Assembly: GCA_030374765.1 (NCBI GenBank)
Contig: JARGXX010000004.1
Coordinates: forward strand, 496,001 to 560,000
DNA: 64,000 nucleotides
Direction: 5' to 3'
DNA from: Agarophyton chilense
Taxonomy: Eukaryota; Rhodophyta; Florideophyceae; Gracilariales; Gracilariaceae
Part shown: in pieces, positions 880 to 61,450 of the stretch
Position numbering within the stretch: the first letter of the stretch is position 1
Layout of the letters: each line of letters starts with the position of its first letter
Notes under the pieces: model-generated
The model's database searches: none
What the model was told of the DNA's origin: nothing
What the model saw: the letters and a program-made list of their open reading frames with translations, nothing else
Position numbers and translations under genes: made by a program

Positions 880-3800
880 GAAAATATAAGGTCTATGCAG
901 ACATCGGCTCTGACAGGAATCTGTTATATCGTCGATTAACAATCCTGGACACAGGTGCTGGTCCGAACTTTATTCGGTAATCGTAGCTCGCTCCTGCTGA
1001 CTTAGAAAGTATTCGATACGGTCCTTTACCGGACATCCGGGACGCCAACAAAAATGCTGTGAATACACTGGGAATAGTTCCACTCGTGGTGCGTTTGGGA
1101 CGCTTTTTAGTCCTAGTCCACTTCATCGTCTGTAAGACGTTAGCTGCACCAGTGGTACTGGGATGTGATTATTGCGACAGGTTTGTCGAAGCCAATCGCC
1201 CGCGAAGAAAACTAGTGGAACTAGATGATGGATCAATGGTACCAATTGTTCGCAAGCCAATGCGTCGTTGCCCCGAAGCACCTCTACTTCTACCATCTAT
1301 GGAATAAGGTAAATCCCGAGGACGTGTCTCGCCGAGGATTAGAGTAGCGAAGAGTGTCATGCTGAAGGCGCAAACCCAAAATTTGGTTCAAGCAAGAACA
1401 GAACGACACGGACTCGTGGTATTTCAACCGAATACTCGGATGTACGAATCCCGTGGATTGCTAGTCGCTAACGGCATTGTTCAGTTTGATCCTTGTAGCC
1501 CCTTTTGGATACTAGTGAGTAACTTCACCGATAACGATTATCCTATACCAAAGAATCAGGTTGTTGCAACAGCTTTGCCTCATCCCACAGTGGTGGTCCC
1601 TACTCATATTTCTACTGCAGAAGTATTGGGATTAACCCATGTCGGTGACACAGAGGAAGAACTGCAAACTCCGTCTGGGGATCAATTGAAAATGGAAAAG
1701 GATCCAGAGAGCCTGGTCGATGAGCTAGACTTAGCACATGTGTCGGAACACTACAGAACGAAGATCAGGTCTATGCTGAAGAAGTATACAGCCATTTGGA
1801 CTGGAAAACTAGGAGAGATCTCCGCTACGGAACACCACATTGATTGGGTCTCAGGGTCACAAACCATCTCCCAACCACCCTACAGAGCGGGACCGCGAAC
1901 TCGCCAAATAGAGGAGGAGAATGTCAGCAAAATGCTGGAAGAAGGCGTAATCGAAGCAGCTCAATCTGCTTGGGCCTTACCAGTGGTACTGGTCCCAAAA
2001 CCTGATGGTTCTTTACGATTCTGTATCGATTATCGAAAACTGAACGCAGTTACAGTTCGGGATACATACCCGTTGCCTCGAATGGACGAATGTATTGACA
2101 GCGTAGGAGAAGCGAACGTGTTCACCACGTTGGACGCCAACTATGGCTATTGGCAGGGGCCTGTAGCGGAAGAAGACCAAGACAAAACCGCATTTGCGTG
2201 TCACGCTGGTCTCTACCGTTTCAAAAGGATGCCCTTTGGCTTAACGAATGCACCGGCTACTTTCCAGCGTACTCTGGACATCTTGCTCTCAAGATACAAG
2301 TGGAAGACTTGTTTAGTCTATTTGGACGATGTGATCATCTTTTCCCAGGATGTGAAAAGCCATTTACGGCATGTAGAGGAGATCCTCAAAGCACTACAGA
2401 GCGCAGGTATCACCTTGAAGTTCAAGAAATGCGAATGGTTCGCTGGCACCGTCCGGTACTTAGTACACGTGATCAAACCGGGACAGCTTGCCATTCAAGA
2501 GGCACAAACAGCGGCTCTCCGCGAAGTACAACCTCCGTCGACACAGAAGCAATTGCGTTCTTTCCTCGGCTTGTGCAACGTCTACCGACGATTCGTGCAG
2601 CGAAACTTGCATATAGCGGCACGGCTCAACGCAAAGCTGCGTAAAGGACAACCAGTACAGCTGGAACAATTCAGACAAGCTGAAGTGGAAGCGTTCGACA
2701 CGCTGAAGACAAAGATTATTACAGCCCCAGTCTTGGCGCTGCCCATCCCCAACCTGCCATACTCAGTGGATACCGACTCTAGCGAGTACCAAGTAGGGTG
2801 TGCCCTTTTTCAAACACACCCTGATGGTGAAGTATTCAGTTTCAGAAAAAGAATGCCTTGCAGTCGTTTGGGCTCTAACCACATTGCGACCGTATCTCCA
2901 AGGAGAACGTTTTACCGTCAACACGGATCATTCGTCTCTACGATGGTTACTGTCCATTACAGACCCGTCTGGTCGTCTCACACGATGGCGCTAACGCCTT
3001 TCTGAATTCGATTTCGAAGTGAAGTATAAGAAGGGACTGGACAATGTCCAAGCTGACGCGCTATCGCGACTCAAAACACTGGGCGAAACCCAAGGCAAAA
3101 TCGATGAAGAGATACCTTGCTTCTACATGGAGACCCATTCACCATCTTTTGAAGAAGAGGAACAAGAGACCCTTGATGATTATTCGGATGCAGACCCGTT
3201 CCTTGCATTAGCAGACACTGATCCTTCAGTTCAACTCCAGCGAATCTCGTGCACTTAGTTCCTCAATGAGCAACACGCCGATACATTTTGTGCGTCGATA
3301 CACTCTCGTCTTAACGGGGGGGAGGAGCTCCCCTTTTCACTCGATTCACGAGAAATACTGTTAAGACATGTCGAAAAGCATGATCAAATCGTGATTCCAC
3401 ACGTCTTGAAGAGTCGAGTACTCCATCTGGCACACTACAGCAGGCTGTCTGGTCATCCAGGAGGAACGATGTTGTTCATGACTCTAAGAAGAGATTTTTA
3501 CTGGCCTACTTTGGCAATGGACTGCCATGCTACAGTGAGGTTGTGTAAAACATGTGCGAAGAATCGCGTGAAGCTTTACAGGAAGCGGAAACCGATGAAG
3601 TTATTCCAGGCGAAAGCGCCTTTACAATACGTCAGTATCGACATCCTAGGGGAATTGATTCGCTCAAGGCGAGGTTATCGCTACCTATTGGTAATCACCG
3701 ACCGCTTCTCGAAGCTAGTGCAGACTGTGCCGCTGAAGCGGATAACCGCAACCGTAATCGCACAGGCGTTTATCAAACACTGGGTATTTATATACGGACC

Positions 3801-5400
3801 ACCAGAAGATCTGTTATCAGATATTGGGAAGCAATTCGTTGCGAAGTTCTTTCAGAATGTTTGCCGCATTATGGGCATTCGAAACGTGTTTATCACGACC
3901 TATCCTCCGCAATGCAACGGTCATGTGGAGCGTTTCAACCGCACGCTGATAGCAGCATTACGACACTACATCGCGGACCACCCGAAAGAATGGGACATGT
4001 TTACTGATACTCTGTGCTACGCGTACAATACGCAAGTGCATACCTCTACAAAGACGGCACCGTTCGACCTCGTGCTCTCACGTAACCCTCTGGCTTTATC
4101 GGTTGCGCTCGACGACGAGACAGAATTGGACGCGCCGACCCCGGCTAAGTACCATCTGAAATGGAGGAATGACCTGAAGACCAGAGCGGGAGAAGCCGCT
4201 AAAGAGTTATCGAAAACGCAAGCTCGCTATATGCGAAACTATGACGCCAGAAGGCGAAGAAGAAATCCGGCAATCCGAGTAGGAGGTCACGTCTTCGTGC
4301 GAGTTGAAAGTCCGGACAAACAGGAAGAATCTCGTCATAAGTTGTTGCCGATGGCGGCTGGACCCTTCAAAGTGGTGGACCTTGATGAAGACACAGTGGT
4401 CATCAAGACAGGTGAGAACGTTGAACGTGTATCGCGCCATCGCGTTGAAGTCGCGCCTGACCCGCAAGTGGAAGTCCAGGTATCTGGTAGAACTAAGGAG
4501 GCAAGTGCGGCGGAACGTCAAGGCAAAAGCCCAAGTGACTCTGGGAAGAGTGAACCGCCACCAATGGCTCGAGCGGAGAAGAAAGCTCCTGATCTCCCAC
4601 CGCCCGCGGTTGCGTACGCCAATCACGGACAGCTTCCGAAATATCGGGATATGCCCCGCTGCACGCACACACCCGTAAGTACAGAAATGGAACCTGAAAG
4701 CAGGAAAGATGTTTTGGATTTTGGCCCCAAGAACTTGGAAACGAGTGCACGCGAAAACGCGCCGTTGCCGCTTCAGGCTGAACCGTCAGGTGAAGCGCCA
4801 CTCGCTGTTCCGCCGATATCGGCTCTCACCCCTCGTGGGCAGGAAGAAGAAGAGGTATTGCCTCCTGTCGTAGTGCAAGCACCATCATCCACCCAACAGC
4901 GGTCAGAATCGGATAAACCGAAGGAAGTTCATCCTCGAATGGAATTGAGAAGTAGCAAGAAATACGCTTCTATGGAACCTGGAAAACAGGATAGCTCTTT
5001 ATCTGAGAAAGGATCTCAAGGAATGAGTACACTGCCTCTACGGGCAGAACGACAGTTAGTCGACGAGCGAACGCTTAGCGACGCGGAGACTGCTAACACA
5101 GAGACGCTTGGGGCAGCCCTAAGGCATTTCAAACCTGTTAACAGGAGTCTCGCGCCAACAGCGAAAGCATTGGAAAACGCTCAGAAATATGTTATGGATC
5201 GCATATGTGAACATGGCTAGCATGAAGATACCAGAGAATTACTGTATCTAGTCCGTTGGTACGGTTTTCCTCCGGAAGCGGATACGTGGGAACCTATAGC
5301 TCATATCCCCCGTTCGCAACTCGTGCGATATCATCGACGCATGCGATTACCATTCCCCAGGGAGATCGACTCCTTGATAGTAGGGCCCATGGGCACATCC
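880..5400 (+). CDS. Element A pol region: PR, RT, RNase H, integrase, chromodomain-like tail
   Basis: Approximate domain spans are as follows. The retropepsin-like protease is at 885-1290, with LDTGAGPNF. Reverse transcriptase is at 1890-2480, with the catalytic YLDD at about 2328-2339. RNase H is at about 2750-3070. Integrase is at 3400-4100, with a His/Cys zinc-binding head and the DDE core around the motif IDILGE. A GPY/F-type module is at 4270-4450. A proline- and glutamate-rich linker follows, then a chromodomain-like end at about 5160-5380 ([14 protein letters not shown]-like). The region is related to the pol of C throughout. It is broken in several places and is treated as a fossil. 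Confidence 0.85.
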
Positions 5401-5419
5401 CATTTCTAAGTATGGGCTA

Positions 5420-5665
5420 CGAAGGTAGTAAAAACTCGAAAGGCGAGGAGAAAACAAGAAATCATGAACAGGAAACGTGAAGACACGCAAGCAAAGAACA
5501 TTTACTGATTATCACCTAGGACAAACTCGAGAAGCGAGAAGAAGGATTGAAGAACTCGGGAAGCGAGAAAAAGAATTTAAGAACTCGAGAAGCGAGAAGA
5601 GAGGAAGACTAGAAGATAAGAAGGGAACGTGAAGACACGAAGTCACCGGAGTTTTATTGATATCA
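5420..5665 (+). repeat. Purine-rich short repeats between element A pol and antisense ORF
   Basis: This convergent junction between the sense pol end and the antisense frame end is almost pure purine on the plus strand. It holds three to four imperfect copies of a unit like AACTCGAGAAGCGAGAAG (about 5523, 5549 and 5580, and a weaker one near 5430). A second motif, AACGTGAAGACACG, occurs twice, near 5475 and 5627. Element C has a comparable purine-rich (gag-pol sense) tract at the same junction. Confidence 0.7.
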
Positions 5666-5709: not shown

Positions 5710-7209
5710 TCAAAGAGACGTGGGATCACGCAGGTTCGCAAGAAGCTGTGCGCGATCACCCTCAACTTGGTCCACGGGAAAGCCCACATCTAAGAGGAAC
5801 TGTCTCAGCGGATCCAAGCCTGGATCTTCGACCGGCACTGCACTCGGTTGTTGGGTAAACCCATGAGAGTACTCTTGAGCAACTCCCGCCGCTGCGGATT
5901 GATCGCCGGAAGTCGCTACGCCTGCCAGCTCTTGCTCGTCCTCGTAACCGAGTTCAGTCTCAGCTCCCGGCGCTTCCTCATACGGTTCCTCTCCGTTCTC
6001 GGATGGAGTACCATCGTATACGTATCCAGTAAGCTGGTTCGGTGGCATGTCACGGGGGTTCTCCCGAAGAAAGCGAGCCTGCTCGGAGGTGATCAATTGG
6101 CGCGTCCAGGGGTCGTACCAAACGAAATCTCCAGCACTTGCTGTTCGTCCAGGAGAATGGTCGTAGTGTCTTGCACGGGTTTTGCGAGCGGATTGATCAG
6201 CTGGCACTCCAGACCAGGCGACACTGTCGATTACATCCACAAGATGGAGGAAATCGACATGGTTCTCACGGGATCCCAGGACAATGGAAAGATCGGGTTC
6301 TCTCGCATACTTTCGCGCTGTGGGCGACATGTACCAAACTCTAAAGGTATCATAAGCATCCCACAGGAGGAAGACGGCCATCTTGGCGATAAAATCGGTA
6401 TAAACCACCGTCCAATATCCCGAGAACGGGTCGTTAACCAACGCAGACCCGATGTAGGAGATCGCCGGTGGGAGCTCTACAGGGCAACCAAGAGGACTCT
6501 CGATCGCCGCCCAATGCTCCGGAATACCGATGTAGCGCCCGAAGCGCGCGTTCCGCCGGATGCGGTCAATCTCGATCATTTGATACGACACCAAATAGCC
6601 CAAACGTAATCGAGAACGACGTTCCCAACGGCGATAATCCCAATGGGGAATGTCACGCTTTCGAAGGAAGCCGAACTCCGCACGGAGAAGAGGTTGCTGA
6701 AAGCAGAGAGCTGCATCACGCACACCGCGCACACCGCACCAACCGCTAACATCGACTTCAACGAGTGTCTCGATATACGAGTAACCTTCACCGTCGGAAC
6801 GGGCTTTCCAGGTATCTAGTTCACAGTTCTGCGGGAGGAGAACCGTACTGATGAATCGCTGAAGATGCTGGTAAACCAGCTTGGTGAACCGCGTACGGGC
6901 TTCGGACAAGGTTTCCGTTGAATATCGCGCAATTGCGTTGTCTGGCAAAGCAATATGGCTCGACCAGTCGTCGCTATGAATCGCGTGTTCCGGAATACCG
7001 TCAGGGAAGTACCCACAGTGTACATACTGTTGTATCAACGCGTCATCGTGGATAGCAACTGGATCAAGCCAGGGTGCTTGCGCGAAAAGTTCAACGTTGT
7101 CGAGAGGATCTCTTCCATAGAAATCCGCAGGGTGCGGGTAGCTCCGCTGCGCACGACGAGAAGGAGCTGGAATCACACCCGCAGAGGCGACGTAAGCCGC
7201 GTTCGGCAT
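5710..7209 (-). CDS. Antisense ORF of element A (conserved protein of unknown function)
   Basis: A frame of about 500 codons on the strand opposite to gag-pol, lying between the pol end and the 3' LTR. The start given is the ATG at 7209; a GTG three codons upstream at 7218 is also in frame. Blocks shared with the antisense ORFs of B and C include LRAEF, a basic RRSRLRLGYLVSYQ-like block, ELPP followed by YIGS, NDP.SGYW, an aromatic DAYD.FR.WY block and a WYDPW-like block. The C-terminal third is acidic and low in complexity, ending in a short hydrophobic motif (LDVGFPVDQV). I see no signal peptide or clear membrane segment, so an envelope role is not indicated. No family is recognised. Its long open frame beside a decayed pol is notable. 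Confidence 0.75.
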   Translation of the reverse strand: MPNAAYVASAGVIPAPSRRAQRSYPHPADFYGRDPLDNVELFAQAPWLDPVAIHDDALIQQYVHCGYFPDGIPEHAIHSDDWSSHIALPDNAIARYSTETLSEARTRFTKLVYQHLQRFISTVLLPQNCELDTWKARSDGEGYSYIETLVEVDVSGWCGVRGVRDAALCFQQPLLRAEFGFLRKRDIPHWDYRRWERRSRLRLGYLVSYQMIEIDRIRRNARFGRYIGIPEHWAAIESPLGCPVELPPAISYIGSALVNDPFSGYWTVVYTDFIAKMAVFLLWDAYDTFRVWYMSPTARKYAREPDLSIVLGSRENHVDFLHLVDVIDSVAWSGVPADQSARKTRARHYDHSPGRTASAGDFVWYDPWTRQLITSEQARFLRENPRDMPPNQLTGYVYDGTPSENGEEPYEEAPGAETELGYEDEQELAGVATSGDQSAAAGVAQEYSHGFTQQPSAVPVEDPGLDPLRQFLLDVGFPVDQVEGDRAQLLANLRDPTSL

Positions 7210-7544
7210 CGGAGCCACGGTTGGCTGAGGTAACGGTACCGACAGGAATCCGGTGTACGGGGTGGGGAACGAACGGTATGGACCGAGTTGAGCAGTAGCC
7301 TGCGACGCAGAACCAGCAGTGGTTGACGGAGCCTAAGAAGGCACATCCTCAGAGGAGGGCTGAAACGGGTTGGACCCGGCGTTCGGATCCATCGCGAAAG
7401 ATCGAGCTGAAGAGCGTTGAGGAACAGAATGCTGTTGAGAACTGTAAGAGTTGGTCGTGCGGCGAGGAATTCGTGATGACGATGAGTACCCGGAACACCG
7501 GTCCGACTGCGTATAAACGCTTCTTGCGTCCCCCATGGTTCGCG

Positions 7545-7560
7545 CTTAACGAGGGGGGTA
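7545..7560 (+). other. Polypurine tract of element A
   Basis: CTTAACGAGGGGGGTA lies immediately before the TG start of the 3' LTR, where plus-strand priming takes place in LTR elements. It closely resembles the tracts of B and C, which are CTTAAGG-G/A-GGGGGA-type on the minus strand. This agreement fixes the LTR start at 7561. Confidence 0.75.
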
Positions 7561-8485
7561 TGTAGTATTCTACTATGTCGGGGAATCCGATAGGATGATT
7601 TTTCGCGAAGTCGCGGTTGGAACTCATAAGTGAGTGATGTCATCAAACTTGTGATATGAAACGGCACACCGCGTAGAATGCCAGGAGGCAGGGTACTTTA
7701 GTTAATCACGTGGCATCACGAGTAGAGTGGCTTGCAACGGCGCATGTAGTGGCGATCCACGTGGCAGGTTCTACTACCCTTTGTAGCTAGACGTCCATTA
7801 GGGACCATACCCATACTGTGGTTTGGCTAAGTGGCTGACCACTGGGTATTATTTATATATTTATTTGGGCACTCACCCTGGCACACAGGATATAGTGCAC
7901 CAGAGGTGAGCGCCGACTCCAAGTAAAGGAGACAACATGGGCATCATGACTATTCTGTTCCTCGCTTAGGATTCCTTAACCGGAGATCCGGACGAGCCAT
8001 AATAGATAGTCAGCCCCCAACCACTTCACCAGCCGTCTCGTACCTACGTTCCATCAAAGTTTTACAGTTGCACTGTTCACCCTCGCTGGCGAGTAGTGGC
8101 CTTACACCCCACTTCCAGCTCGCTGGTGTTGTAGCTCTACCACCCCTTTTACTTCGCCGCAAGCGACTCATCGGCAGTCCGAACGCTGTCGCAGGTGTCT
8201 GCTCTCTCCGTTAGAGCCGATACTACGACTTGGTTAGACAGTAGGCGATGCGGAAGCAGAATCGCAGGCAAGCAGGGCCACTACCGAAAAGGTGTCCGAG
8301 AGCGTGCTAGGTACACTGCATCGCCCTCATGACAGTCCCTACCTGAGTGGTTGTCGCTCAATTCGTGCGCCGAAGTCGTCGCGCGCCCTCCCCCAACCGA
8401 TACTTGCGACGAGTTCTGAAGCTCAAGGGATCCAGCGCCGCGCCCAGACACTGCTCCGATGCCCGCATCGCTGTCGCTCGCTACA
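7561..8485 (+). repeat. 3' LTR of element A
   Basis: The start is set by the polypurine tract and the TGTAG terminus. The end is a candidate (CTACA, 8481-8485) giving 925 bp, similar to the 863 and 898 bp of the B and C LTRs. The partner LTR is outside the window, so the end is not proven. No sequence similarity to the B, C or D LTRs was noticed by eye. Confidence 0.55.
7848..7866 (+). promoter_or_regulatory. Candidate TATA region in LTR A
   Basis: The stretch TATTATTTATATATTTAT is the only strongly AT-rich block in the LTR and lies about 290 bp from its start, a usual position for the U3 promoter of an LTR. No transcription start is visible, so this is a weak call. Confidence 0.35.
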
Positions 8486-8542
8486 ACTCTATGGTGTGAT
8501 GAAGGGAGACACGGGGCGTGCCTCGTGGGTAGGAAGGGGGTC

Positions 8543-9616: not shown

Positions 9617-10109
9617 TGTCCTAAAATCACCTCTGGGGTATGCTACTGTCTTGTCTCAGAAGCGTAGTTACGTTCAACCGTAGGGAGCGTGTTTACGCTC
9701 AACCTTAGAAGGTAGACGTAGTTAACCTCGATGGGAACAGGGCACCGTGAAAACCCGCAGGGGCAAACGGCGGGGCAACTAGCCTATACCGTGTAGGTGA
9801 TCGGTGGTAGGCGTCGACGCGCGGGAAAGCCTGTGTAGTAGTTGGGAAACAATGAACCCAAAGGTATAGTCGTGACCCAAATGGTGCCTGTCTTTATCAG
9901 ATTAGGATGGGAGAGGTGCAGTTCCCTATATGCAGTGGACTGCACTCTCCAGATCACCCGGGAGGTGCCAGCAAGGCACGGTCTCTGACCTAGTGTCAGA
10001 GACCTGGCCAGCACTGGCTACAGTGCCAGGTGGCCACTCCACTACTCTACTAAAATACATATAATTACAATCACTATTACTAACAATTACTCAACCAGAA
10101 GGTACATGT
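9617..10109 (+). repeat. Right LTR of element D, first part
   Basis: 493 bp of the right copy, broken off by the insertion of B. It continues at 20227 after the CATGT duplication; 493 plus 141 bp gives 634 bp, exactly the length of the left copy. By eye it differs from the left copy at roughly a dozen positions, many of them in one AT-rich stretch. Confidence 0.75.
10105..10109. repeat. Target-site duplication of element B (left)
   Basis: CATGT directly before the left LTR of B, repeated at 20222-20226 directly after the right LTR. Five bases is the usual length for Ty3/gypsy integration. Confidence 0.85.
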
Positions 10110-10972
10110 TGTAGGACAATGCCCCCGAGGGGGAAAACCTACGAAGACGTCCGGATCTTCCTCTCACGAGGTAACCGGCGCGGTAGAGCCCTCCCAGGGA
10201 TCGGCGCGCAATGCCGGGTGTAAGCCGGAGCCGAACCGTCGCGACGGCGCAAGGAGGCTGAAAGAAGCCGAGAATATCCGCAGAAGCGGTGCTTGCGTAT
10301 CCTCTGAGGAGGCAAAACCCACGAGAGTGGCGAGCACGTCAGGTGTCAGTGCGAGCCGCAAGAGCGGGAATTGCCCAATGAAGGGGAGGAAAAGGGAACG
10401 AAAATGGGAACGGAGGCAAGAGGGCGAGGTTGACCACGAGTCGCAAGAGGGGACTCGGGAATAGCCGGCACTGCCGAGTGTAGCAAACCGTATACACGGG
10501 CGGAACCACGAAAGTGGGAATAGATACCAACACACGAAGGCTGCTTGAACGTCCAAGGGGGTTGGGAAGCCGTGCACCACGGGAAATCCCTCCGTAAGGA
10601 GTTGTATATCCGCGCAGGCGGTTCGACCCAGAGCCAAGATCTGGAAGACCAAGATCACCGTTGTTGGGGAGACTTTACTGGACCGGCGGCCGCGAGGCCG
10701 GCGGCCTAAGTACTGTAGTCACCGTAGAATAGAATAAATAAAGTCTATCCTAAATAGCTAAATGTCCGTCTAACAAAAGGGGCCAATCTGGCGGCCACGT
10801 GTTGCACGGGCGCTGCGGCCACGTGTATGGCACCCGGTCCCGCCGGTGCATCACAGGCGTTCCGGGTGTCGCCGTGAAAGCGGATTACTCCTACTCATAA
10901 CGAGGTTGCACGCCGGAGGCTCCGGAAAAAACTTAAGTCCCCAAAAACCTCCCTGGAGGACGTTGCTCTTCA
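10110..10972 (-). repeat. Left (3') LTR of element B
   Basis: 863 bp, from TGTAGGACAA to TTGCTCTTCA, with TG...CA ends. It is GC-rich except for an AT-rich island at about 10725-10772 with GAATAAATAAAG on the plus strand, which could be a promoter element for the antisense gene that begins 47 bp beyond the LTR. That role is a guess. Confidence 0.9.
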
Positions 10973-10987
10973 TATCCCCCCCTTAAG
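10973..10987 (-). other. Polypurine tract of element B
   Basis: On the minus strand CTTAAGGGGGGGATA abuts the 3' LTR. It matches the tract of C (CTTAAGGAGGGGGAGA) and, more loosely, that of A. Confidence 0.8.
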
Positions 10988-11018
10988 ACAGGGCGAACAC
11001 CTCGAAGAGGAAGTCGGC

Positions 11019-12794
11019 ATGGCAGCTCGTCATGATAAGAGCGCGTCCGACACCGGGTCTTCGGAAACCAACACACCTTCACCAAGGATCCCACGCACGC
11101 TCTCCGCATCCGATTCCAACAACAGCACACCAACACGCACCATGTCCAACCCCGACCGTCATAACACATCCGCGACTCCCGCCCTTGGTGGTTCCATCGG
11201 CTTCCGGTCCGCGCCCCACCCTGGGGATATTACCAACCTCGCGTACGAAGACCGCCGTATTGGCGCCCGCTTTCGCGGACAGGCGGACCCACCGCAGTGG
11301 CCGACCTACGACGCCCTTGTGGGTGCGAATCCGAGAACTCGGCATGGCTCCGCGAGGTTGCGGTATGCGCCTTGGTTTCACCCATTGGCTGTCCGCGACG
11401 AGGATTTGATTCAATCCTACACCGATAACTCGGAGATGCTCCCGGGCGACCTGCCCGGCGTGGTGACCCTGTCCTGGGATTGGCGTAATCGTATCGCCAT
11501 CCCGGTACACCACATACTCGGCCGACGCGGTGAATCCTCTGCGGAGGCTCAAGCGGCGCTTGTGCGGATTGCTTATCTCAGGCACCATCGGGCGCCTTTC
11601 GAGTTCCCGATACCGCCAGAGGTCGACTTCGACGTCCACCTTTACCGCACTCGCGGGGAAATGTCGTACTGTGACCGTCTTAACGGATTGGAAACCCTCG
11701 CTTGGAGGGGCACACCGATCGCTCGGCAAGAAGCCCTTTGCTGGGCACGACCGATTCTTCGGGCAGAGTTCCGCTATCAACCGCGGCAGTCGCGCTCGAA
11801 CTTCCTTCAGAACTTCATCCGCGATGAGCGGCGTTGGCGGGCCCGGACCGGGTATTTCGTACCGTACCAGAACGCGGAGATTGAGCGCATCGCGCCTGCT
11901 CACCGACGTGGTCGGTACGTCAGTCTCCCAGACTGGTGGTCCTCCTTGGAGGCGTGCTGGGGTTGCTTCGTTGAGCTGCCCCCAGTATTCACCTATGTAG
12001 GGTCGTCGTTCTTGAACGATCCCCAGTCGGGGTGGTGGTCCGTCGTGGTAAGCGAATGGGCCGTCCGCACTGCGGCTTTTATCCTCGCTGAGGCGTACGA
12101 CCAATACCGATTGTGGTACGTGCGACCGCGTGTGCGGGCTGCGATCCGTCGTTTGGACATGCGCATCCCCCTCGGAGGCGAGGCGAACGAAGAAGAGATG
12201 CTGGGCCTCCTCGAATTTGTGGAGGGGGTCCAGTGGGATGAGGTCCCGCTGGAGAACTCCCAACGCATTCAACCGCGTCGCGGGTCTGGCCCCGGACTCG
12301 GGAGGAATACCGCGCTAGCGGGGGATTTCGTCTACTTCGACCCCTGGGAGTACCACGAGATCAGCCGCGAGGAAGCGGAAGCCAACTGGCATGCGCCGCG
12401 TGAAGTCCCGGCCGACCACCCGCGAGGGTATGTCGACTCGAGCGACTATTACCGCGACTATGCGGATGGTGACCCGATGGTCGACAACGAACCGGAGAAT
12501 CCGGGTTACGCTCCGATGGAGGATGACGGGTCCGGCGAGGCCGGTGAGGAGTCCGTTGAATACGGTGGTGCGGCTCCATCCGGGGCTGCTGATGCCGTGC
12601 GAACGGATTCCTATCCGACTCCATCGGTGGCGGGCCCGCCGGCAACTGCCGCTGGCGCGGAGCGGGGCGAGGTCATCGCGAGCTTCCTTCGGGAGGTGGG
12701 GCTTCGCCCTTCCGAGATCTTGGGTGATGTGGCCGCCATGCGGGATGCCTTAGCCAACCGCCTGGGCGGGGGTCCACCTCGTGCGGAGGAATGA
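11019..12794 (+). CDS. Antisense ORF of element B (conserved protein of unknown function)
   Basis: A 591-codon frame opposite to gag-pol, starting 47 bp inside the 3' LTR and ending about 330 bp before the pol end. The start is an ATG at 11019. The N-terminal 70 residues are rich in Ser, Thr and Pro. The middle carries the shared blocks: RPILRAEFRY at about 11755, ELPPVFTYVGSSFLNDP at about 11972-12020, an EAYDQYRLWY block near 12090, and a FDPWEYHEIS block near 12335. The tail is acidic, then Ala/Gly-rich, with a final short helix-like motif. No signal peptide or membrane span is seen. It resembles the antisense ORFs of A and C at a modest level, clearly lower than the similarity of the pol genes. 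Function is unknown; a soluble structural or regulatory accessory protein is possible. Confidence 0.8.
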   Translation: MAARHDKSASDTGSSETNTPSPRIPRTLSASDSNNSTPTRTMSNPDRHNTSATPALGGSIGFRSAPHPGDITNLAYEDRRIGARFRGQADPPQWPTYDALVGANPRTRHGSARLRYAPWFHPLAVRDEDLIQSYTDNSEMLPGDLPGVVTLSWDWRNRIAIPVHHILGRRGESSAEAQAALVRIAYLRHHRAPFEFPIPPEVDFDVHLYRTRGEMSYCDRLNGLETLAWRGTPIARQEALCWARPILRAEFRYQPRQSRSNFLQNFIRDERRWRARTGYFVPYQNAEIERIAPAHRRGRYVSLPDWWSSLEACWGCFVELPPVFTYVGSSFLNDPQSGWWSVVVSEWAVRTAAFILAEAYDQYRLWYVRPRVRAAIRRLDMRIPLGGEANEEEMLGLLEFVEGVQWDEVPLENSQRIQPRRGSGPGLGRNTALAGDFVYFDPWEYHEISREEAEANWHAPREVPADHPRGYVDSSDYYRDYADGDPMVDNEPENPGYAPMEDDGSGEAGEESVEYGGAAPSGAADAVRTDSYPTPSVAGPPATAAGAERGEVIASFLREVGLRPSEILGDVAAMRDALANRLGGGPPRAEE

Positions 12795-13129: not shown

Positions 13130-16100
13130 ATCCCTCTTGGGCGTTTACCAGCGTGGCTGGGAGTGCGGTCCCCGCAAGGCGGTGGTATCGCATTACCGCG
13201 GAGCGCGGGAGGTGCTCGATGGGCTCCGGGGTGTCCCACTCCTGCCCGTATCCGTACCAGCGGGTCCGGTACTGGAGCACCCCGTGCCCATCGTAGCTAT
13301 GTCCGACGATTCGGTCGAGGACGTACTCCTGCACGTAAACTTGCCGGCCTTGCCGGGTGGTGGTGACCCGAGCCTCAGCGCCGCGTGGTGCTGGGCTCGT
13401 CGTCGCCTGTTCCGGGTCACCCGGTTTGTCATTCCGCTCTGCAGTTGTTGCCGGGTTGCTGGGGCTGCCGTACCGCTTCGCAGAAGTTGCCGGCGCGGAC
13501 GGGTTGTGTTCCCGCTGGGCGATGGGGGCTTCCCTGAAGTCCGCTCTTACCGCGAGTTTGCGGGGGTCCTTCCGTCTTGGTGACGGTTCGCCGGAGGCCT
13601 CCGCTTGATTTGCGGCATGCGGCGTTCCCATTGGTGGGCAGTTTCCGCCGTGCAGTGCGCCGCGGGCGGTGAGTGGTTCACCGTCCCGGCGGTCCGCCTC
13701 CGCGGGGTGACTGTCAGCCAATGCCCGGGATGCCGGGTGCCCATTGGTCCGATCTCCCGCCCGGGTCACGTGACCTTGAGAACGGGTGGTCGAGCCGTCG
13801 CGGAAGGTTGGCTCCCATTGTTCGGCAAGGGAGGCGGCTTTCGACTTGTCGTTGCGCCCCTTTTCCCCCATGGGGTTCGTACCGTTCTCAACGGAGTGGC
13901 TCGCTAGACCTGCTTGCGCAGCGCCGGCGGGAGTACCGGTACCGACCAAAACGTTCGGCGTGCGACCGCGAATGTGCGGGGGAGCCCTTAGTTGCTTCCA
14001 TGCGATGCGGAGCGTCCGTAGGGTCTCGCTTCCCGGCTTCGGGTCTTCGAGCGCCTCGGTTCCCCTTGCGGGGTGGCGTGGCAGTCGGGTTGACCGCCGC
14101 GTCCCGCGGGAGCGGATTGGCGTCCGGCGACGATGCCGGTTGCCCGCTCGGGGGCCTTGCCCGGGGTGTCCAGTTAAACTTCCGTTGCGACGGAGATGCT
14201 TCCGCGATGGAGCGGGTCCCCTTCCCCTCCTTAGACGGAGCGACGGGTGCTGGTGGGATAACCGCATGGCGGGTATAAATACCGCTGCGCGGCGCCCGTA
14301 AGGGTAGCTGGCCGCGAGGGCCAGGTGTTTCCGGCATTGCCGGTGGTTCCGATAAAGTCGGTATATCGGAGAGACCCCGTAAGGGGTGCGGTACCACGGC
14401 GGGGCTTCTAAGCCATGGTGCCACGGGTACGGGTGTTTCATTCTCGCGCGCTGCGAGTAGCTCATCCATTTCCATGGGGTCTTCATCGGTTTCGGGCCAA
14501 TCCGACTCCGTCGGTGTTTCCCTTTCCAAGGTAAAGCACGGGATCTCGTCGACCTCCGGGTCGGCAAGTGCTTCACCTGTCGTAGGTAATCGAGAGAGGG
14601 CGTCTGCTTGGGTGTTCTGGACACCCTTTTTGTAGACGACCTCGAAGTCGAATTCCGCTAAGCGGAGGCGCCACCGCATTAAGCGGCCAGAAGGATCTGC
14701 GATGTTCAGCAGCCACCTCAACGAGGCATGGTCCGTGTACAAGGTTAAATGAACGCCCATGAGGTATGGGCGCAGAGTGGATAGCGCCCAGACCACTGCG
14801 AGGCACTCCTTCTCGGAGACCGAGTAGTTGCGCTCGTGGACGTTCAGCGTGCGGGACCAATAGCCAATTGGTTTGCGTTCCCCCTCGGGGGTGGTTTGGA
14901 ACAGTACGCAGCCCACCTGGTGGTCGCTGGCGTCGGTGTCGATGGAGTAGGGAAGCCCAGGTTTAGGCAAGGATAGGATGGGAGCTGTCGTAACTGCCTT
15001 AATCAAGGAGCGAAAAGATTCCGACTGATCGGTGGTAAATTGCGCAAGCTTCGGTAGCTGGCCCTTCCGCAGTAGCGCGTTTAGCGGAGCGGCGATATCC
15101 GAGAAACTCGGTATAAACCGTCGATAGACGTTGACCAGACCTAAAAAGGATCGGAGCTCCGTTTGAGTACGGGGCTCCTTCGCCTCGCAGAGGGACTTGA
15201 TACGAACTTGTTCGATCATTAAGCGTCCTGGACGGATGACGTGCCCGAGATACTTCACCGTGTCGGTGAAGAACTCGCACTTCCTCAACTTGAAAGTTAT
15301 TCCTGCGTCTCGCAGTACGGTCATCACGTCCCGCACGTGGGTCAGGTGATCGTCCAGGTTTCTGGAAAAGACAATGATGTCGTCCAAGTAGACAAGGCAC
15401 GTGCGCCACTTTAAACGCGACATTAGTATGTCTATTGCCCTTTGAAAGGTGGCCGGTGCATTGGTTAAACCAAATGGCATCCGCTTGAAGCGGTAGGAAC
15501 CCGAGTGGCAAACAAACGCGGTTTTGTCTCGGTCCTCTTCCCGGACTGGGACTTGCCAGTAGCCCCAGTTAGCATCCAGAGCCGTAAACACGGTAGCGTC
15601 CCGGAGCGAGTCTATACACTCGTCCATGCGCGGGATCGGGTAGGTGTCCCTCACGGTGACGGCATTGAGGCGGCGGTAGTCAACGCAAAACCGCCACGTG
15701 CCGTCAGCCTTGAGGGCCAGCACCACCGGTGAAGCCCAAGGAGATTGGGCGGGCTCGATGATTCCAGCACGGAGCATCTTGTCCACCTGAAATTCTTCCT
15801 CCTCCCGAGCTTTCGGTCCCGCCCTGTAAGGGGGTTGTGCAACCGGACGTGCATCCGGTAGCAAGTCTATCCGATGTTCGGTTGTATTGATCTCATCCAG
15901 CGAGCCGTTCCACATTGTGGTAAACTCGCGTAGCATTCCGCGTAAGCGCTCCCGGTGTGAGACCGGTACATGACTCAGGTCCAGGTCCTCGAGGGCCTTG
16001 ATCGGGTCTATCTTATCGTAGCTCGTAGGCTGTGCCCTGGTGTCAGGTGTGGGAACCGACGAGGTCGGAAATGCACCCGTCTTGACGGTTTTATCGAGCG

Positions 16101-17090
16101 CCAACTGCTGTGCCTCCCCGGAGGTTTCTGCACCGGATACCGGGAGACCATCCTCGGTAGAGGGAGTTATCCCGAGTACTTCGGCAGCCGTCACCTTTGT
16201 AGGGAGCATCGCGAGCGGGTGCGGCGTCACAGACCCAATGACTTGGTTCTTTGCCAGCGTCTGGGGAGCCTTCCCCAGATTGGCAACCAACACCCTGAAA
16301 GGGGAATTCGGCGTGACTTGCACGATTCCGTTCGCAACGGTTAACTGAAATTTCTCGTACAACGAGGGCAAGGGCTGAACAACCCGAAGACCGTGTTGAC
16401 GGGAATTGACTGAAACCATAACCTGGCTCTCCGGGGGTATGGTTACTGACGAGGCAACGCGTAGCTTCGTAGAATCCCGGTTCGCCGGTGTGGGTTTCTG
16501 CGCAGCAGGTAGAGGAACGTGTTTCCTCGATGCCCGCTTCAGCGGTTGACGAACAATGGGGACGGTCGATCCGTCCTCAAGTTCCACCTGCTTAAGGCGT
16601 GGGCGGATGGCGTCGACAAACCTGTCGCAGTAGTCACATCCCAGTACAACTGGCGCGGCCAGCGAGCGGCACACAATAAAAGTTAGTTTAACCACCATCC
16701 GCCCTAGCCTAACGACCAGGTCGCTCACACCAGCCGTTTTCAACGGGTTGTTATTGGCGTCCGACACGTCGGGTACCGTTTCAGAACGGATGAGTGACCG
16801 CAATGGCGGGGGTAAAACCGATTCCACAATAAAGTTCGGCCCAGCACCTGTATCCAGGACAGTGAGATGTCTCACCATAAACTGCGTGTGCAGACCAAGG
16901 TCAGCGTAGACCTTGTAGTTACGCTTGGCCATTACCAAGACTCTATCCGGGATCCGGTTATTTCTAATCCGTATCCACGGTCGACGCAACACACCGAGGT
17001 GTTTAGAGTCCGCGTCTGCGGTGTCCTTCCTTGTCAGGATTTTCACCGGGGAGCGAGGCATCGGCGCCTCGGGCGTCGTCAGCCTCAACT
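13130..17090 (-). CDS. Element B pol region
   Basis: Domains seen on the minus strand are retropepsin-like protease (LDTGAGPNF at about 16830-16860), reverse transcriptase (about 15230-15800, with YLDD near 15385), RNase H (about 14600-14960, with the TDAS and DALSRL landmarks), a very long Pro/Arg-rich stretch, and a chromodomain-like end (RTRWYGY, EPIEHLPRS) at about 13130-13340. It is related to A and C across RT and RNase H. The element is treated as a fossil that is not whole. Confidence 0.8.
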
Positions 17091-17119
17091 CTGAGGACGC
17101 CTCTCCCGAAGGGGAGGCT

Positions 17120-19215
17120 CCCTCTATTCTTTTCCCTGTACAGGGTCCTGGTCGGGCGAAGGCCCGACTTCCTCGGCAACGAGTGCGTGATTCCGTTGCA
17201 CGGTAGCTACCGCAGGAGCGGGGGGAGATCCACCAGCGTGGTTTGGCGCTGGTGCGGCGCGTGCCGGCTGAGCCGGTTTGTACCGAGAATTCGGAGTGTG
17301 AGCCAATGCGTTGGGGAAGTCCGTCTTCGCGCGGAGATATGACGTGAGTGGCACGGAGCCCTTCTCCTGCGGGGAGAGGGCTTCGTAATTATCCACCACT
17401 CGAGCCATATCGCGTAGCGATAAAAGGCATTGCGGGGAGGTGTGCCCGCGCTCGTAGCACAAGTGGCACACCAACGTCACTCCCGCGTTTCGCGGTACGG
17501 CATTCCGAGCATCGGTGTATCTTCCGGGTTCCCGGTTTCCAACCCATCCAGGGCGCTGACTTCGTGTCATTCCGTTTGAGTACGGCATACGGGGGGCCGG
17601 AGTGCGGCGGTCATTAAGATAGAAGACCTGCCCGTTCTCCGTGTCCCTTGCGGCTGAGTCAACCGAGCCATCCGTCGTAGACGGTAATTCCGTTGTCGGA
17701 ATAGATAAACCATCGTGATGGATGACATTCATATTGTCATAACCCTGGTTGGGGATGCCATCCGTCGCAAATGACGGTGAAGAAAAGTCTGACTCAAGCA
17801 GCAATGCTTTAGCGGCCTTCGACCGGGTTCCCGGGTTGCGTGCACGTAGTGCATCTCCCTCTGCGCGGGCAAACTGTACGAGTTCAAGGTAGGTCACCTT
17901 CGGCTCTTGTTCCCTGTAACGGGCGACAAGAGTCTTGATGGCTGGATCCAAGCCGTCAATGAACATCGTGCAGCGTTCCCCAGCGGGGTATACATTACCA
18001 CAACGGTGGAAAGCCTTATTCAGGCGTACCGAGTAATCGATCTCGAGCTCGCCGGAGCGTTGTCGAGTGTCTCGCAAAGCGAGTATCGCCGCTTGTATCG
18101 CGGAGTTGGTTGCGTAGGAACGCAGGAGGTACTGCACGGCCTCGGGCCAGCAGGTCACACCTCCTTCGGAGGCTCACGACGAGCCCCGAACCGACAAAAA
18201 CTGATCTTCAGCGACACCCCGTAGAAAGTAGGGTAGCGCCACGTAAGCTTGTCCTTCGTTCATTCCGAGTATATCGGCTTCCGCTACAAAGCGGTGTAGG
18301 AAATCCAAGACCAGAATTGGATCATCCCCAGTAAACGACTGGTTACGAAGTGAAAGCTGCATCCGCTTGATGCAGTCTTTCACTTTACCCGTTTCACGCG
18401 GTGTCCGACCTAAAGAGGAATCTTCTAGCCGGTAATACCGATAGGACAGAAGTGTCCTGTACAGAGGGTTGGTGGGCTTCAAGGGTTTGAGGCCCGGATG
18501 TCGCCGACCCTTGGGGCGCGACCGGATGGCCCCGTAGGTGGCAGAGGACCGCTTTGAGCGGGAAGAGCGCCCATAACGATCCTGTGGGTCATCGCTCACC
18601 GACGAATCGGAACTCTCCGAGTCACTCGGTTTACCGTCCAACTCAGATGATGAGTCGGACGGGTGTCCGTGCTTACGGTTAGAATCCCGGTTCTTCCGGC
18701 TCTTCCGGTTCCGCGACTGGGTCTCTCGATGAGAGACAACCGGTCTAGCCGCGTTTGCGGGCGAGGTTAACGTCCTCTCGACCGACTCAAGTCGGCTTCG
18801 GAGACGCTCGAAGCGATTCTCCATACCTTCTGCGAAGGAAGACGGAGCGCCAAAACACTCGAGTAGTGTATTGACGTCCGACCGCAATACGCGGATATCC
18901 TCGGCTAACTCACTTGGAGGGGGGTTAGCGAGGCTTCCTCGTAAAGAGGTGAACTCCCTCGAGAGGGTATTGTGAGCAACCCGCAGGGAGCGGAGCTGCT
19001 CTTCCAAGCGTACAATCCGCGCTTGGTCGACCAACCGCGGAGGCGGAGAAACCACCGTTGCGACGGTCGTTAACCCGGAATCGGGCTGCGGGTCTTCAGT
19101 GCCGGTGACCGGTATCTCCCGGGAATGGGGTGTTGGAGCCAGGGCCTGTGAAACATCAGTGCCCCTGGCATCACCGCTTTGGCGGGAACGGCTGCGTGTT
19201 GCAGGAGGCTCCATG
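17120..19215 (-). CDS. Element B gag region
   Basis: A gag polyprotein on the minus strand. The N-terminal part is Ser/Arg-rich with a charged coiled-coil-like segment (about 18950-18800). A conserved block of the kind KPTNPLYRTLLSYRYYRL (about 18420-18480) and a capsid-like helical region follow. A CCHC zinc knuckle, CHLCYERGHTSPQC, is at about 17430-17475. The same order and landmarks occur in C gag. The reading is interrupted about once. Confidence 0.75.
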
Positions 19216-19355: not shown

Positions 19356-19358
19356 ATT

Positions 19359-20221
19359 TGTAGGACAATGCCTCCAAGGGGGAAAACCTACGAAGACGTC
19401 CGGATCTTCCTCTCACGAGGTAACCGGCGCGGTAGAGCCCTCCCAGGGATCGGCGCGCAATGCCGGGTGTAAGCCGGAGCCGAACCGTCGCGACGGCGCA
19501 GGGAGGCTGAAAGAAGCCGAGAATATCCGCAGAAGCGGTGCTTGCGTATCCTCTGAGGAGGCAAAACCCACGAGAGTGGCGAGCACGTCAGGTGTCAGTG
19601 CGAGCCGCAAGAGCGGGAATTGCCCAATGAAGGGGAGGAAAAGGGAACGAAAATGGGAACGGAGGCAAGAGGGCGAGGTTGACCACGAGTCGCAAGAGGG
19701 GACTCGGGAATAGCCGGCACTGCCGAGTGTAGCAAACCGTATACACGGGCGGAACCACGAAAGTGGGAATAGATACCAACACACGAAGGCTGCTTGAACG
19801 TCCAAGGGGGTTGGGAAGCCGTGCACCACGGGAAATCCCTCCGTAAGGAGTTGTATATCCGCGCAGGCGGTTCGACCCAGAGCCAAGATCTGGAAGACCA
19901 AGATCACCCTTGTTGGGGAGACTTTACTGGACCGGCGGCCGCGAGGCCGGCGGCCTAAGTACTGTAGTCACCGTAGAATAGAATAAATAAAGTCTATCCT
20001 AAATAGCTAAATGTCCGTCTAACAAAAGGGGCCAATCTGGCGGCCACGTGTTGCGCGGGCGCTGCGGCCACGTGTATGACACCCGGTCCCGCCGGTGCAT
20101 CACAGGCGTTCCGGGTGTCGCCGTGAAAGCGGATTACTCCTACTCATAACGAGGTTGCACGCCGGAGGCTCCGGAAAAAACTTAAGTCCCCAAAAACCTC
20201 CCTGGAGGACATTGCTCTTCA
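19359..20221 (-). repeat. Right (5') LTR of element B
   Basis: 863 bp, aligned without gaps by eye to 10110-10972, with about seven single-base differences. It is followed directly by CATGT (20222-20226), the target-site duplication. Confidence 0.9.
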
Positions 20222-20226
20222 CATGT

Positions 20227-20367
20227 CAACGCTACACGTGGCTAACAACACCTAGATGGTAGCTCGCCCGGAGCTACGTGGCCGATGATTTCTCGCACCC
20301 ATCACCTACAAGGTCAGTGTAGTATATTGATAACCTCAAAGGTCAACCCTTTTGCCACTTTACGACA
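20227..20367 (+). repeat. Right LTR of element D, second part
   Basis: The last 141 bp of the right D LTR, displaced by B. It ends TTTACGACA. By eye it differs from the left D LTR at about 11 positions, most of them G:C to A:T changes. That is a higher rate than in the 9617-10109 part of the same LTR. Confidence 0.7.
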
Positions 20368-52906: not shown

Positions 52907-53804
52907 TGTGGAGCAAAACCCGGCGACGGGAAGTGCTCTCAAGGTGTTCGAAGCCTTGCTCCCTGGGGGAGGCAGACTCAGAGACAGAGCCCTCCGTTCC
53001 ACCCGTAGTGTGGGGTGTAACTCCCACGGGGGATTCCGGCAGTACCGACGGAGGTGAGGGGTAGAAACCGTTGGATCGGGAATGGGAATGGGTATCCCAA
53101 AGAATGGGGGAAAATCCGGCGAAGAGGAAAAACGGGGCGAGGGTCGGGCACTAACAGGCACCGGACCCGAGAACCAGAAAAGGGGCGAAACAACAAAATA
53201 AACCCAATACAGGGGCGAAAACCTGTCCTCGAAAGGAAACACAAAAAGCACGCAACAAGTAAGCAGAACCCCCACGGGGTATCGTGCACGCTGGTCGTCT
53301 GAGCCGTCCCAAGGGGGTGGTTGCACGGAACCCAAACGTGGGCACTCTCCAAGTGGAGTCGTGTCCCTACGCAGGCGTTGCTAACTAGAGCCCGTTCCGG
53401 GTTGTAAGGCCGAAACGATGGCGACGAAGAACCTCTAAAGGTATCGAAGACCAACCTTGGTTGTCATTTACTCTGAGCTCGGACTGTCAGATCTCGCCTC
53501 CCTAAGTAGGGCCCACTAACTAAACTCTACAGTAGTGCACACCTGCTCAGGGCCATACACGTGGAGATCCCACTGCCAGGGCCCAAAAATCCAACGTTCT
53601 AACAAATATCCGAAATTCAGTGCCAAAATTAAGCCACGTGTATCACGGGGCCAATCCAACCATGGGCCATTCGAATCTTCACTTCAGAAAACAGTGCCAC
53701 CTCAGCACACCTTAGAGGGGATCATAATCATAACCCTTGGAGGGTTCAATCCTCATTCTATGAGTTGCATCTTCAAGTATCCCCTAACTGGGCGTTGCTC
53801 TACA
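52907..53804 (-). repeat. Left (3') LTR of element C
   Basis: 898 bp, TGTGGAGCAA to GCTCTACA. The start is fixed by the match to 63777 onward and the end by the adjacent polypurine tract. ATAAG (52902-52906) should be the target-site duplication; its partner is outside the window. Confidence 0.85.
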
Positions 53805-53820
53805 TCTCCCCCTCCTTAAG
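53805..53820 (-). other. Polypurine tract of element C
   Basis: CTTAAGGAGGGGGAGA on the minus strand, abutting the 3' LTR. It has the same core as in B. Confidence 0.8.
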
Positions 53821-53885
53821 ACGAGGAAGAACATTCCGAGCCGCGGGTGTCTAACTTTCCGATCACTATACATACTAATCTCCCA

Positions 53886-59900: not shown

Positions 59901-61450
59901 GGAATCGGAAAAGTCCTTGATGACACACGAACGCCGTTTTGTCTCGATCTTCCTCCCTAATAGGGACTTGCCAGTAGCCCGAATTGGCGTCGAGGGTAGA
60001 GAAAACAGTAGCGCTCCCAAGGGAGTCGATGTATTCGTCCATCCGAGGGATCGGGTACACATCCTTATTGGTTACCTCGTTCAGGCGTCTGTAATCGATG
60101 CAGAAACGCCACGATCCATCCGGTTTCGGAACTAACACCACTGGTGAGGCCCAAGCGGACTGGGCAGGTTCAATTACGCCCGCTTTAAGCATCTTCTCCA
60201 CCTGAGATTTTCTCCTCTTCCCGAGCTTTCGGTCCAGCCCTGTAAGGGTGTTGGGCAATAGGCCGAGTGTTCGGTAACAAGTCGATGCGGTGTTCTGTAA
60301 TCCCAATAGTTCCAAGGGAACCATCCCACATGGGGGTAAATTCACGAAGCATGTGCCTCAGCTTCTCCCGATGAGATGCGGGTACATGGTTGAGATCCCA
60401 TTTTCCCAATTCCTGAACAGGATCCGTCTGGTCTGCTCCTGTGATAGGGGCCGTAACCTCCTGAGGTTTAAAGTGTTCAGCGTTTGGAGCTGCAGTCGTA
60501 TGCTCACCGTCTTCCGCGATTTCGGCAGTGTCCTCCCCCTCCTTAGGGTCCGCCACACCAAGGACCTCTGCGATAGAGATCTTTGTAGGTACGACCGCAT
60601 GCGGGTGTGGAAGAACAGAACCCAGGATCTGGTGTTTGACCAAATGCTGCGTTGTCTTTCCAAAGTTGGCTACCAAAACCCTGAAAGGTTTATCCGGTTC
60701 CACGGAGACAACCCCATTCGCAAGGGCGAGTTGACGCCGCGTATACAGAGACGGGTTCGGTAGTACCACATGCACACCAATTTGCTTGGTAACAACTGTG
60801 ACCCAAACCTGGGTTTCTGGCGGGATAGCAACTGACTTCGCAACCTTTACTCGTGTAGACACCGGGTCCTTCTTCACAGATTCCTGCGCGACGGGGAGAG
60901 GAACGCGTGTTCGCGCTGCTCCCTGAAAGGTTTTACGAACGATTGGGATCGTAGACCTGTCTTCGAGTTCCACAGTTCTATTCCGAGGACGGATGGCTTC
61001 CACGAAGCGGTCGCAAAAGTCACAATTCAGTATGACTGGTGCTGCAAGTGACTTGCATACAATAAACTCCAGTTGAACGAGATAGGAGCCTAACCTCACC
61101 ATGAGGGAAATTGTACCCAGTGTCCGTAGCGGGTTGTTGTTCGCATCGGCGATATCCAAACGTGGACCGGTACGAACTTGAACCCGGAGCAGCGGGGGTA
61201 ACAATTCAACATGAATTAAGTTAGGAGCGGCTCCTGTATCCAGGACAGGTATTTGACGAACCATAAACTGGTTGGACAGGCCGAAGTCGGCGAATACCTT
61301 ACAATTCCGCTTGGCCATTACCATAACTCGATCCGGAATACGGAGATTACGGGACCGTATCCACGGGCGACGGAGGACACTAAAGTATCCCGAGTTAACG
61401 TCGGTGTCAGCCGTTTTCCTTGAAAGGATAGTCACAGCTGGGGAGCGAAG
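56980..61450 (-). CDS. Element C pol region: PR, RT, RNase H, integrase, GPY/F, linker
   Basis: Protease is at about 61320-60940 (LDTGAAPN near 61240). Reverse transcriptase is at about 60200-59630 (YLDD near 59800, with the FCIDYRRLN and [12 protein letters not shown] blocks). RNase H is at about 59370-59020 (TDAS, then DALSRL). The integrase zinc head is near 58680, and the DDE core at about 58480-58060 carries IDILGEF, SDNGGQF and the HPQGNGKVERFNR block. A GPY/F module is at about 57770-57640, followed by a Pro/Ser/Glu-rich linker. This is the most complete pol in the window. It groups with A and B by eye. Confidence 0.88.

What the first reader, a model, noticed from the sequence alone, without database searches (positions are those of the whole stretch)
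5710..7209. Ambisense Ty3/gypsy elements: a conserved antisense gene next to the 3' LTR (element A copy)
In A the strand opposite to gag-pol carries a frame of about 500 codons between the pol end and the 3' LTR. Its protein shares ordered blocks (LRAEF, ELPP...YIGS, DAYD.FR.WY, a WYDPW-like block) with frames in the same place in B and C. It has stayed open although the sense genes of A are decayed. Antisense frames are known in a few plant LTR elements and retroviruses (for example HBZ of HTLV-1), but I recognise no family for this protein.
Basis: partly seen in the sequence, partly recalled or inferred. Interest (0 to 1): 0.9.

Follow-up and report, generated by a model that had tools for sequence, protein, structure and literature searches.

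The report
Antisense gene in red-algal retrotransposons
Several families of jumping genes in a red seaweed carry, on the strand opposite to their usual genes and close to one end, a real protein gene of an undescribed family that has been kept by selection; such backward genes are known in a few plant and fungal elements, but this protein looks new and its job is unproven.

Summary
Element A is a chromodomain-bearing Ty3/gypsy element; an antisense gene lies between pol and its 3' LTR, with homologues in the same place in B and C (33-42% identity). The similarity belongs to the antisense reading: codon positions 1/2/3 are 55/57/28% identical (A-B), and opposite-strand frames show no more than a synonymous-shuffle null. 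Between two subfamilies dN/dS is 0.08-0.15 (dS saturated); among seven A copies it is 0.66-1.6, as for copies decaying neutrally after insertion. Families D and E (very divergent) carry the gene too, and Gracilariopsis chorda proteins pair with A and with B. No Pfam, NCBIfam, PHROGs, PDB-sequence or PDB-fold match was found, although the ~370-residue core models confidently (pLDDT 90, pTM 0.89). First in-frame ATGs lie 24-81 nt from the 3' LTR, which points to a promoter in the LTR. [quoted passage not shown] this protein family, and its place in red-algal chromoviruses, appear undescribed in the papers searched. Function, probably an accessory regulator, is inferred.

The parts
5713..7332 (-). 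Element A antisense gene, open part (540 codons); the finding's frame is its portion from an internal ATG at 7209
7333..7536 (-). 5' part of the A antisense reading: in-frame ATGs at 7536 and 7392; interrupted in this copy by an in-frame stop at 7333-7335
   Evidence: 611-codon frames with a stop-free match in 12 of 80 scored places
7550..7560 (+). polypurine tract of A next to the 3' LTR
   Evidence: read by eye
7561..8226 (+). 3' LTR of A (97.7% identical to the 5' LTR at -2395..-1730, outside the window, locus L054); element flanked by an ACTTG target duplication (by eye)
1308..3002 (+). A pol frame with reverse transcriptase and RNase H
   Evidence: Pfam
3259..5217 (+). A pol frame with integrase zinc-binding and core domains
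   Evidence: Pfam
5221..5403 (+). A integrase C-terminal chromodomain
   Evidence: PF00385 E=6.6e-8
5524..5605 (+). short tandem repeat (29 bp, 2.8 copies) between the convergent ends of pol and the antisense gene
10878..12791 (+). Element B antisense gene (638-codon frame, first ATG 11019)
10109..10975 (-). 3' LTR of B (99.1% identical to the 5' LTR); element flanked by a CATGT target duplication (by eye)
19358..20224 (-). 5' LTR of B
13891..17388 (-). B pol frame (RT, RNase H; no integrase-core match in the B frames scanned); chromodomain in 13140-13400
53820..55598 (+). Element C antisense gene (593-codon frame, first ATG 53886); this copy departs from its relatives near the 3' end (5 of 6 fetched C copies read 640 codons, the sixth runs off its locus at 631)
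52907..53804 (-). 3' LTR of C (98.3% identical to the 5' LTR 63777-64675, which runs past the window)
56986..60357 (-). C pol frame (RT, RNase H, integrase); chromodomain further downstream, within 55599-57200 (-)

Best explanation
This is a protein-coding accessory gene of a lineage of red-algal chromoviruses (Ty3/gypsy with an integrase chromodomain), read in the opposite direction to pol. Shown: position, orientation, protein-level selection in the replicating lineage, near-neutral decay of inserted copies, and presence in several families of this genome and in proteins of a second genus. Inferred: the message starts inside the 3' LTR, which would act as a promoter in both directions, crosses the polypurine tract and ends in the short spacer tail-to-tail with pol. 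The product (disordered N-terminus, about 370-residue mostly helical aromatic-rich core, mostly acidic tail) most likely acts as a soluble accessory regulator of the element's own cycle, for example by binding a host or element partner through the core, and not as a pol-type enzyme or a membrane protein.
For: Alignment of A, B, C. Codon-position identities 0.554/0.570/0.276 A-B, 0.545/0.595/0.302 A-C, 0.558/0.645/0.333 B-C. Two-way synonymous-shuffle test. dN/dS 0.082-0.149 in 27 of 27 comparisons of 3 of the 20 fetched A copies with the 9 fetched P0007-like copies. 50 of 50 loci L001-L050 have the pol end on the opposite strand downstream and the LTR upstream (these loci are the best-scoring A and B copies). 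Homologues in Gracilariopsis chorda: P0014 in a set of six with A, P0016 paired with B, both forks 100/99. Divergent family E in another gypsy family: profile E=7e-14; 23 of 34 E places have an integrase H2C2 hit at 2.1-2.2 kb on the pol side, all 23 on the opposite strand. First in-frame ATGs 24 nt (A), 43 nt (B), 81 nt (C) from the LTR edge. Core model pLDDT 90.3, pTM 0.89. Net charge of 16 of 21 cores (those of 300 residues or more) -8 to +7; 14 of 15 tails net negative, the window's A, B and C tails being cut short in that alignment. Precedent for proposed regulatory or nuclear roles of such genes: PMC7264820 and PMC11963269 (abstract and passages).
Against: No transcript, peptide or promoter data were available. 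Nothing in sequence or structure points to a particular biochemical function. The neutral core gives no support to nucleic-acid binding by a basic surface. dS is saturated in the between-family comparisons (1.9-3.2), so omega is rough. Within family A omega is 0.66-1.6. The 3' LTR promoter is inferred from geometry alone, and weakly: if A starts at its second ATG (7392) 168 nt of internal sequence lie in between, and 1 of 6 C copies (L061) lacks the C ATG. Three of four other gypsy families sampled had no match in the one short slice looked at, so the gene is not shown in all gypsy elements of this genome. Gag was not identified over a Pfam cut-off in any of the three.
Confidence: 0.5

Rival explanations
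1. The antisense transcript, not its protein, is the functional product: it pairs with genomic RNA and limits copy number through double-stranded RNA; the frame is a by-product.
For: The message would overlap the 3' end of the sense RNA; proposed for other elements in PMC7264820 (passages).
Against: Strong protein-level conservation with free third positions over 400 codons is not needed for pairing RNA. Does not exclude an added RNA role.
Confidence: 0.1
2. The similarity is the shadow of a sense-strand gene (for example env-like) on the other strand.
For: Opposite-strand frames of 271 (A) and 411 (B) codons exist.
Against: With the antisense proteins fixed and codons shuffled, opposite-frame similarity is within two sd of that observed (e.g. 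se-1 A-B 0.85 vs null 0.71 sd 0.08; A-C 0.78 vs 0.74; B-C 1.02 vs 1.00), and that best opposite frame carries 29-32 stops, both sequences summed, in the aligned blocks. The long opposite frames of A and B have no Pfam match.
Confidence: 0.02
3. It is an env-like or structural protein that acts in particle or cell-to-cell movement.
For: Place between pol and 3' LTR is that of env. The most hydrophobic 19-residue stretch exceeds 1.6 in 3 of 18 proteins, in the conserved core.
Against: Opposite orientation to env; 15 of 18 proteins stay under 1.6 on the hydropathy scale; no fold match to viral proteins in BFVD for the first, poorer model (the better core model was not run against BFVD).
Confidence: 0.12
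4. It is a suppressor of host silencing or defence carried by the element.
For: Multi-copy families persist in the genome; accessory genes of viruses often do this (recalled).
Against: No similarity to any described family in the libraries searched; nothing specific.
Confidence: 0.15
5. It is a host gene that was captured recently, or host sequence next to nested insertions.
For: Deposited as hypothetical or unnamed proteins of Gracilariopsis chorda and Agarophyton chilense.
Against: 50 of 50 loci examined have pol end and LTR in the same arrangement, and the gene occurs in families whose RT frames are 52-74% identical. No search for a single-copy host relative as such was made.
Confidence: 0.06

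Closest known systems
Antisense additional ORFs between pol and 3' LTR (aORF-3R): maize Grande gene23, rice RIRE2, Silene Retand, PvRetro13
   Same: Place, orientation, conservation over copies and species, no known enzyme domain; short repeats in the same region of A
   Different: Those elements are from flowering plants, and Retand is non-chromovirus; 97% of Retand clusters carry the TRP28 domain (PMC11963269, abstract), which none of 13 members scanned here matches
Botrytis Boty element with antisense gene brtn
   Same: Chromodomain-bearing gag-pol with an additional gene (PMC4227169, passages), described as antisense in the title of the cited Zhao et al. 2011 (paper not seen)
   Different: Fungal; no relation of the proteins shown; no fungal protein was among the 21 proteins returned under a named organism or unnamed source by the three database searches as far as names are given, and BRTN was not compared directly
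HBZ of HTLV-1 and other retroviral antisense genes
   Same: Antisense gene beside the 3' LTR, with a promoter in that LTR in HTLV (PMC7264820, passage); the geometry here points the same way
   Different: No bZIP or other family match; host group and element class differ; splicing and role unknown here

Membership tests
LTR retrotransposons with antisense aORF between pol and 3' LTR | Open frame antisense to gag-pol between pol and 3' LTR | tested here: met
LTR retrotransposons with antisense aORF between pol and 3' LTR | Present in most copies and in distant relatives | tested here: met
   50 of 50 best-scoring A and B loci; C, D, E families and Gracilariopsis proteins; capped lists chosen by the gene itself, so no genome-wide fraction
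LTR retrotransposons with antisense aORF between pol and 3' LTR | Antisense transcription | not testable with these tools
   no RNA data
Chromoviruses (Ty3/gypsy) | RT, RNase H, integrase and C-terminal chromodomain | tested here: met
   chromodomain over the Pfam cut-off in A and C, just under it in B (24.9 vs 25.1 bits); integrase core matched in A and C only
Retand lineage | TRP28 domain (PF04195) in the antisense ORF | tested here: not met
   no PF04195 match up to E=10 in 13 members
Retand lineage | Non-chromovirus lineage in flowering plants | tested here: not met
   chromodomains; red-algal host (inferred)
Retroviral antisense genes of HBZ type | bZIP domain | tested here: not met
   no Pfam bZIP match in 13 members
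Retroviral antisense genes of HBZ type | Promoter in the 3' LTR | not testable with these tools
   only geometry: first in-frame ATG 24-81 nt from the LTR
Env-like genes | Sense orientation and transmembrane helices | tested here: not met
   antisense; 15 of 18 proteins have no 19-residue stretch over 1.6, 3 of 18 have one
Any family with a solved structure | Sequence or fold match in PDB | tested here: not met
   sequence; fold

The most novel reading that the evidence does not exclude
A previously undescribed protein fold, carried antisense by an old and diverse group of red-algal gypsy elements whose LTRs are promoters in both directions, that is needed for their replication; the same architecture arose independently, with unrelated proteins, in flowering plants, fungi and red algae, which would make a backward accessory gene beside the 3' LTR a recurrent solution of LTR elements.
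Probability: 0.3. Interest if true: 0.78.

Novelty: new variant of a known kind. Interest (0 to 1): 0.6.

Why it matters
Antisense genes in LTR elements have been known for years without a determined role (PMC7264820, passages). Here is an independent, strongly conserved case with several families in one compact genome, a core that models well and has no PDB fold match, and natural divergence from about a third to over 95% identity, which makes structure, partner and promoter questions testable. It also shows that some hypothetical proteins in red-algal annotations are probably retroelement genes.

Tried and rejected
Within-family dN/dS alone: one search was invalid because loci were not turned to one strand; one search repeats it correctly and finds near-neutral patterns, so the test of selection was moved to between-family comparisons. 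Sense-strand shadow rejected. Known domains: none over a cut-off in Pfam or NCBIfam for the members scanned, none at E 0.01 in PHROGs. Weak sub-threshold hits (E3_binding in 4 of 13 members, best E 0.029, lying in the core of the one member for which a place was shown; Ish1 at the C-terminal end of P0005, 0.092 for the whole protein and 0.0016 for a cut-out 37-residue end) are hints at most of a helical mini-domain and are not used. The full-length model (pLDDT 65) was replaced by the core model. Viral and prokaryote contig collections: no relatives. The last protein search used an alignment that included families D and E but returned only red-algal or unnamed-source proteins. Literature: eight searches (I saw listings and starts of abstracts, in two of them only the top 20 of 1,032 and top 8 of 29) show no report of an antisense gene in red-algal LTR elements; papers under other licences were not searchable.

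Full report
What is there. The window lies in an unnamed 79.8 Mb genome of 135 contigs. A protein deposited for Agarophyton chilense (P0007) matches it at 100% over residues 1-363, so the host is that red alga or one very near it (inference). Three LTR elements were delimited: A, LTRs -2395..-1730 and 7561..8226, 97.7% identical; B, 10109-10975 and 19358-20224, 99.1%; C, 52907-53804 and 63777-64675, 98.3%. A has an ACTTG and B a CATGT duplication of the target; for C no exact duplication was seen (read by eye). Behind the 5' LTR all three show nearly the same primer-binding motif (A differs at one base) and before the 3' LTR a purine tract. Pol frames carry RT and RNase H matches in all three, integrase domains in A and C (none matched in the B frames scanned), and a chromodomain end in all three (E=6.6e-8, 1.9e-5, 2.6e-8 for A, B, C; B just under the Pfam cut-off). 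They are chromoviruses. Gag was not identified over a cut-off (best: PF03732 at E=0.045 in C).

The antisense gene. In A the frame 5713-7332 (-) ends about 300 bases from the end of pol, tail to tail, and heads towards the 3' LTR. Upstream the same reading goes on to ATGs at 7392 and 7536, but this copy has an in-frame stop at 7333-7335. In one search, 80 places of the genome were scored (a cap; 1817 candidates in the first look); 19 of 80 have no stop in the matched stretch, and 12 of those lie in a frame of 611 codons. B has 69 scored places and C 74. The first in-frame ATG lies 24 nt (A), 43 nt (B) and 81 nt (C) from the inner edge of the 3' LTR. If those are the starts, an antisense message must begin in the LTR or beyond it; if A starts at 7392 there are 168 nt in between. 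Of six C copies fetched, five keep the ATG.

Is it coding? A, B and C align over 403-442 codons at 36-42% identity in the antisense frame, with codon-position identities 0.554/0.570/0.276 (A-B), 0.545/0.595/0.302 (A-C) and 0.558/0.645/0.333 (B-C). Since one opposite frame shares the wobble position, I shuffled synonymous codons both ways. Holding the antisense proteins fixed reproduces the similarity of all three opposite frames within two standard deviations. Holding any opposite-frame reading fixed gives antisense scores far below those observed (e.g. A-C at most 0.76, sd 0.09, against 1.89). Between family A (3 of 20 fetched copies) and the P0007-like family (9 of 9 fetched) dN/dS is 0.082-0.149 in 27 of 27 pairs, with dS 1.9-3.2, near or beyond saturation. 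Within the P0007-like family it is 0.43-0.86 (36 pairs), and among seven A copies 0.66-1.6 in the 20 of 21 pairs that differ. Private changes in 18 A and 19 B copies are close to expectation without selection, with a slight synonymous excess in both: A 113/260/17 synonymous/nonsynonymous/stop against 101/271/18, B 133/267/13 against 116/282/15 (2 of 20 A and 11 of 30 B loci dropped for length differences). In B, changes shared by three or more copies lean to synonymous (pN/pS 0.45 against 0.69 for private ones); in A they do not (0.83 against 0.79). This is the usual mark of a transposon gene: constrained while it replicates, nearly free once inserted.

How far does it reach? Of L001-L050, 50 of 50 have the pol end downstream on the other strand and the LTR upstream; these are the best-scoring A and B copies, chosen by the gene itself. 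Family D turned up with the unnamed-source protein P0009 as query. Family E was met by sampling 1.3-1.4 kb slices downstream of four other integrases: one of four (L071) matched the profile on the opposite strand, E=7e-14, and three of four did not, which for such short slices is inconclusive. A search from E finds a C-family place at E=6.5e-11 and its best relative outside E at 5.7e-12. Of 34 E places, 23 have an integrase H2C2 hit at 2.1-2.2 kb on the pol side, all 23 on the opposite strand (the H2C2 list is capped at 150, of which I used the rows on the same contigs). Three protein searches returned 21 proteins: nine of Agarophyton chilense, two of Gracilariopsis chorda (P0014, P0016) and ten without an organism name. 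In the tree (17 rows) A falls in a set of six with G. chorda P0014 and B pairs with G. chorda P0016 (both 100/99), C pairs with the unnamed P0017 (100/99), and D joins B (100/99), so families A and B are older than the split of the two genera unless elements moved between them. Deep forks are weak. Pol and antisense similarities both rank B-C closest and A-B farthest (pol frames 74% B-C, 64% A-C, 52% A-B, over stretches of different length; antisense 42, 39, 34%).

How it works. [quoted passage not shown] D and E were not tested for chromodomains). Inferred: promoter in the 3' LTR; accessory regulatory role. The inference leans on position and on proposals for plant elements (PMC7264820, passages; PMC11963269, abstract and passages), and its mechanism remains open.

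Compared with what is known. The kind is known: Grande, RIRE2, Retand, PvRetro13 in plants and Boty in Botrytis. Boty has a chromodomain too (PMC4227169, passage), so a chromovirus with an antisense gene has a fungal precedent. What is new, as far as searches show, is the protein family and its presence in red-algal elements.

Noticed in passing
window 8542-9176, 9617-10109, 20221-20368: Inverted repeat arms (97.6% and 90.5% identical) into whose right arm element B has inserted; the split arm marks the insertion site.
   Followed up: partly
G000 contig C5 (8779-51086) and C78: E-type elements stand head to tail with a period of 9734 bases, as if neighbours shared an LTR; C44/C49 show another integrase array of period 6523.
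   Followed up: no
window 52064-53005 (+): A frame with a gag-like zinc-knuckle sequence (recognised by eye) that element C appears to interrupt at 52907.
   Followed up: no
L074 (C75:1514400-1515700, minus strand): A 224-codon frame opposite to the integrase of another gypsy family, without a significant match to the profile; could be a different antisense gene or an unrelated insertion.
   Followed up: no
P0014, P0016 (BWQ96_08668, BWQ96_03215): Relatives of these antisense proteins are deposited as hypothetical proteins of Gracilariopsis chorda; their genomic surroundings could not be seen.
   Followed up: partly
window 21655-26568 (+): A 1638-codon uninterrupted frame between the elements, not examined.
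   Followed up: no
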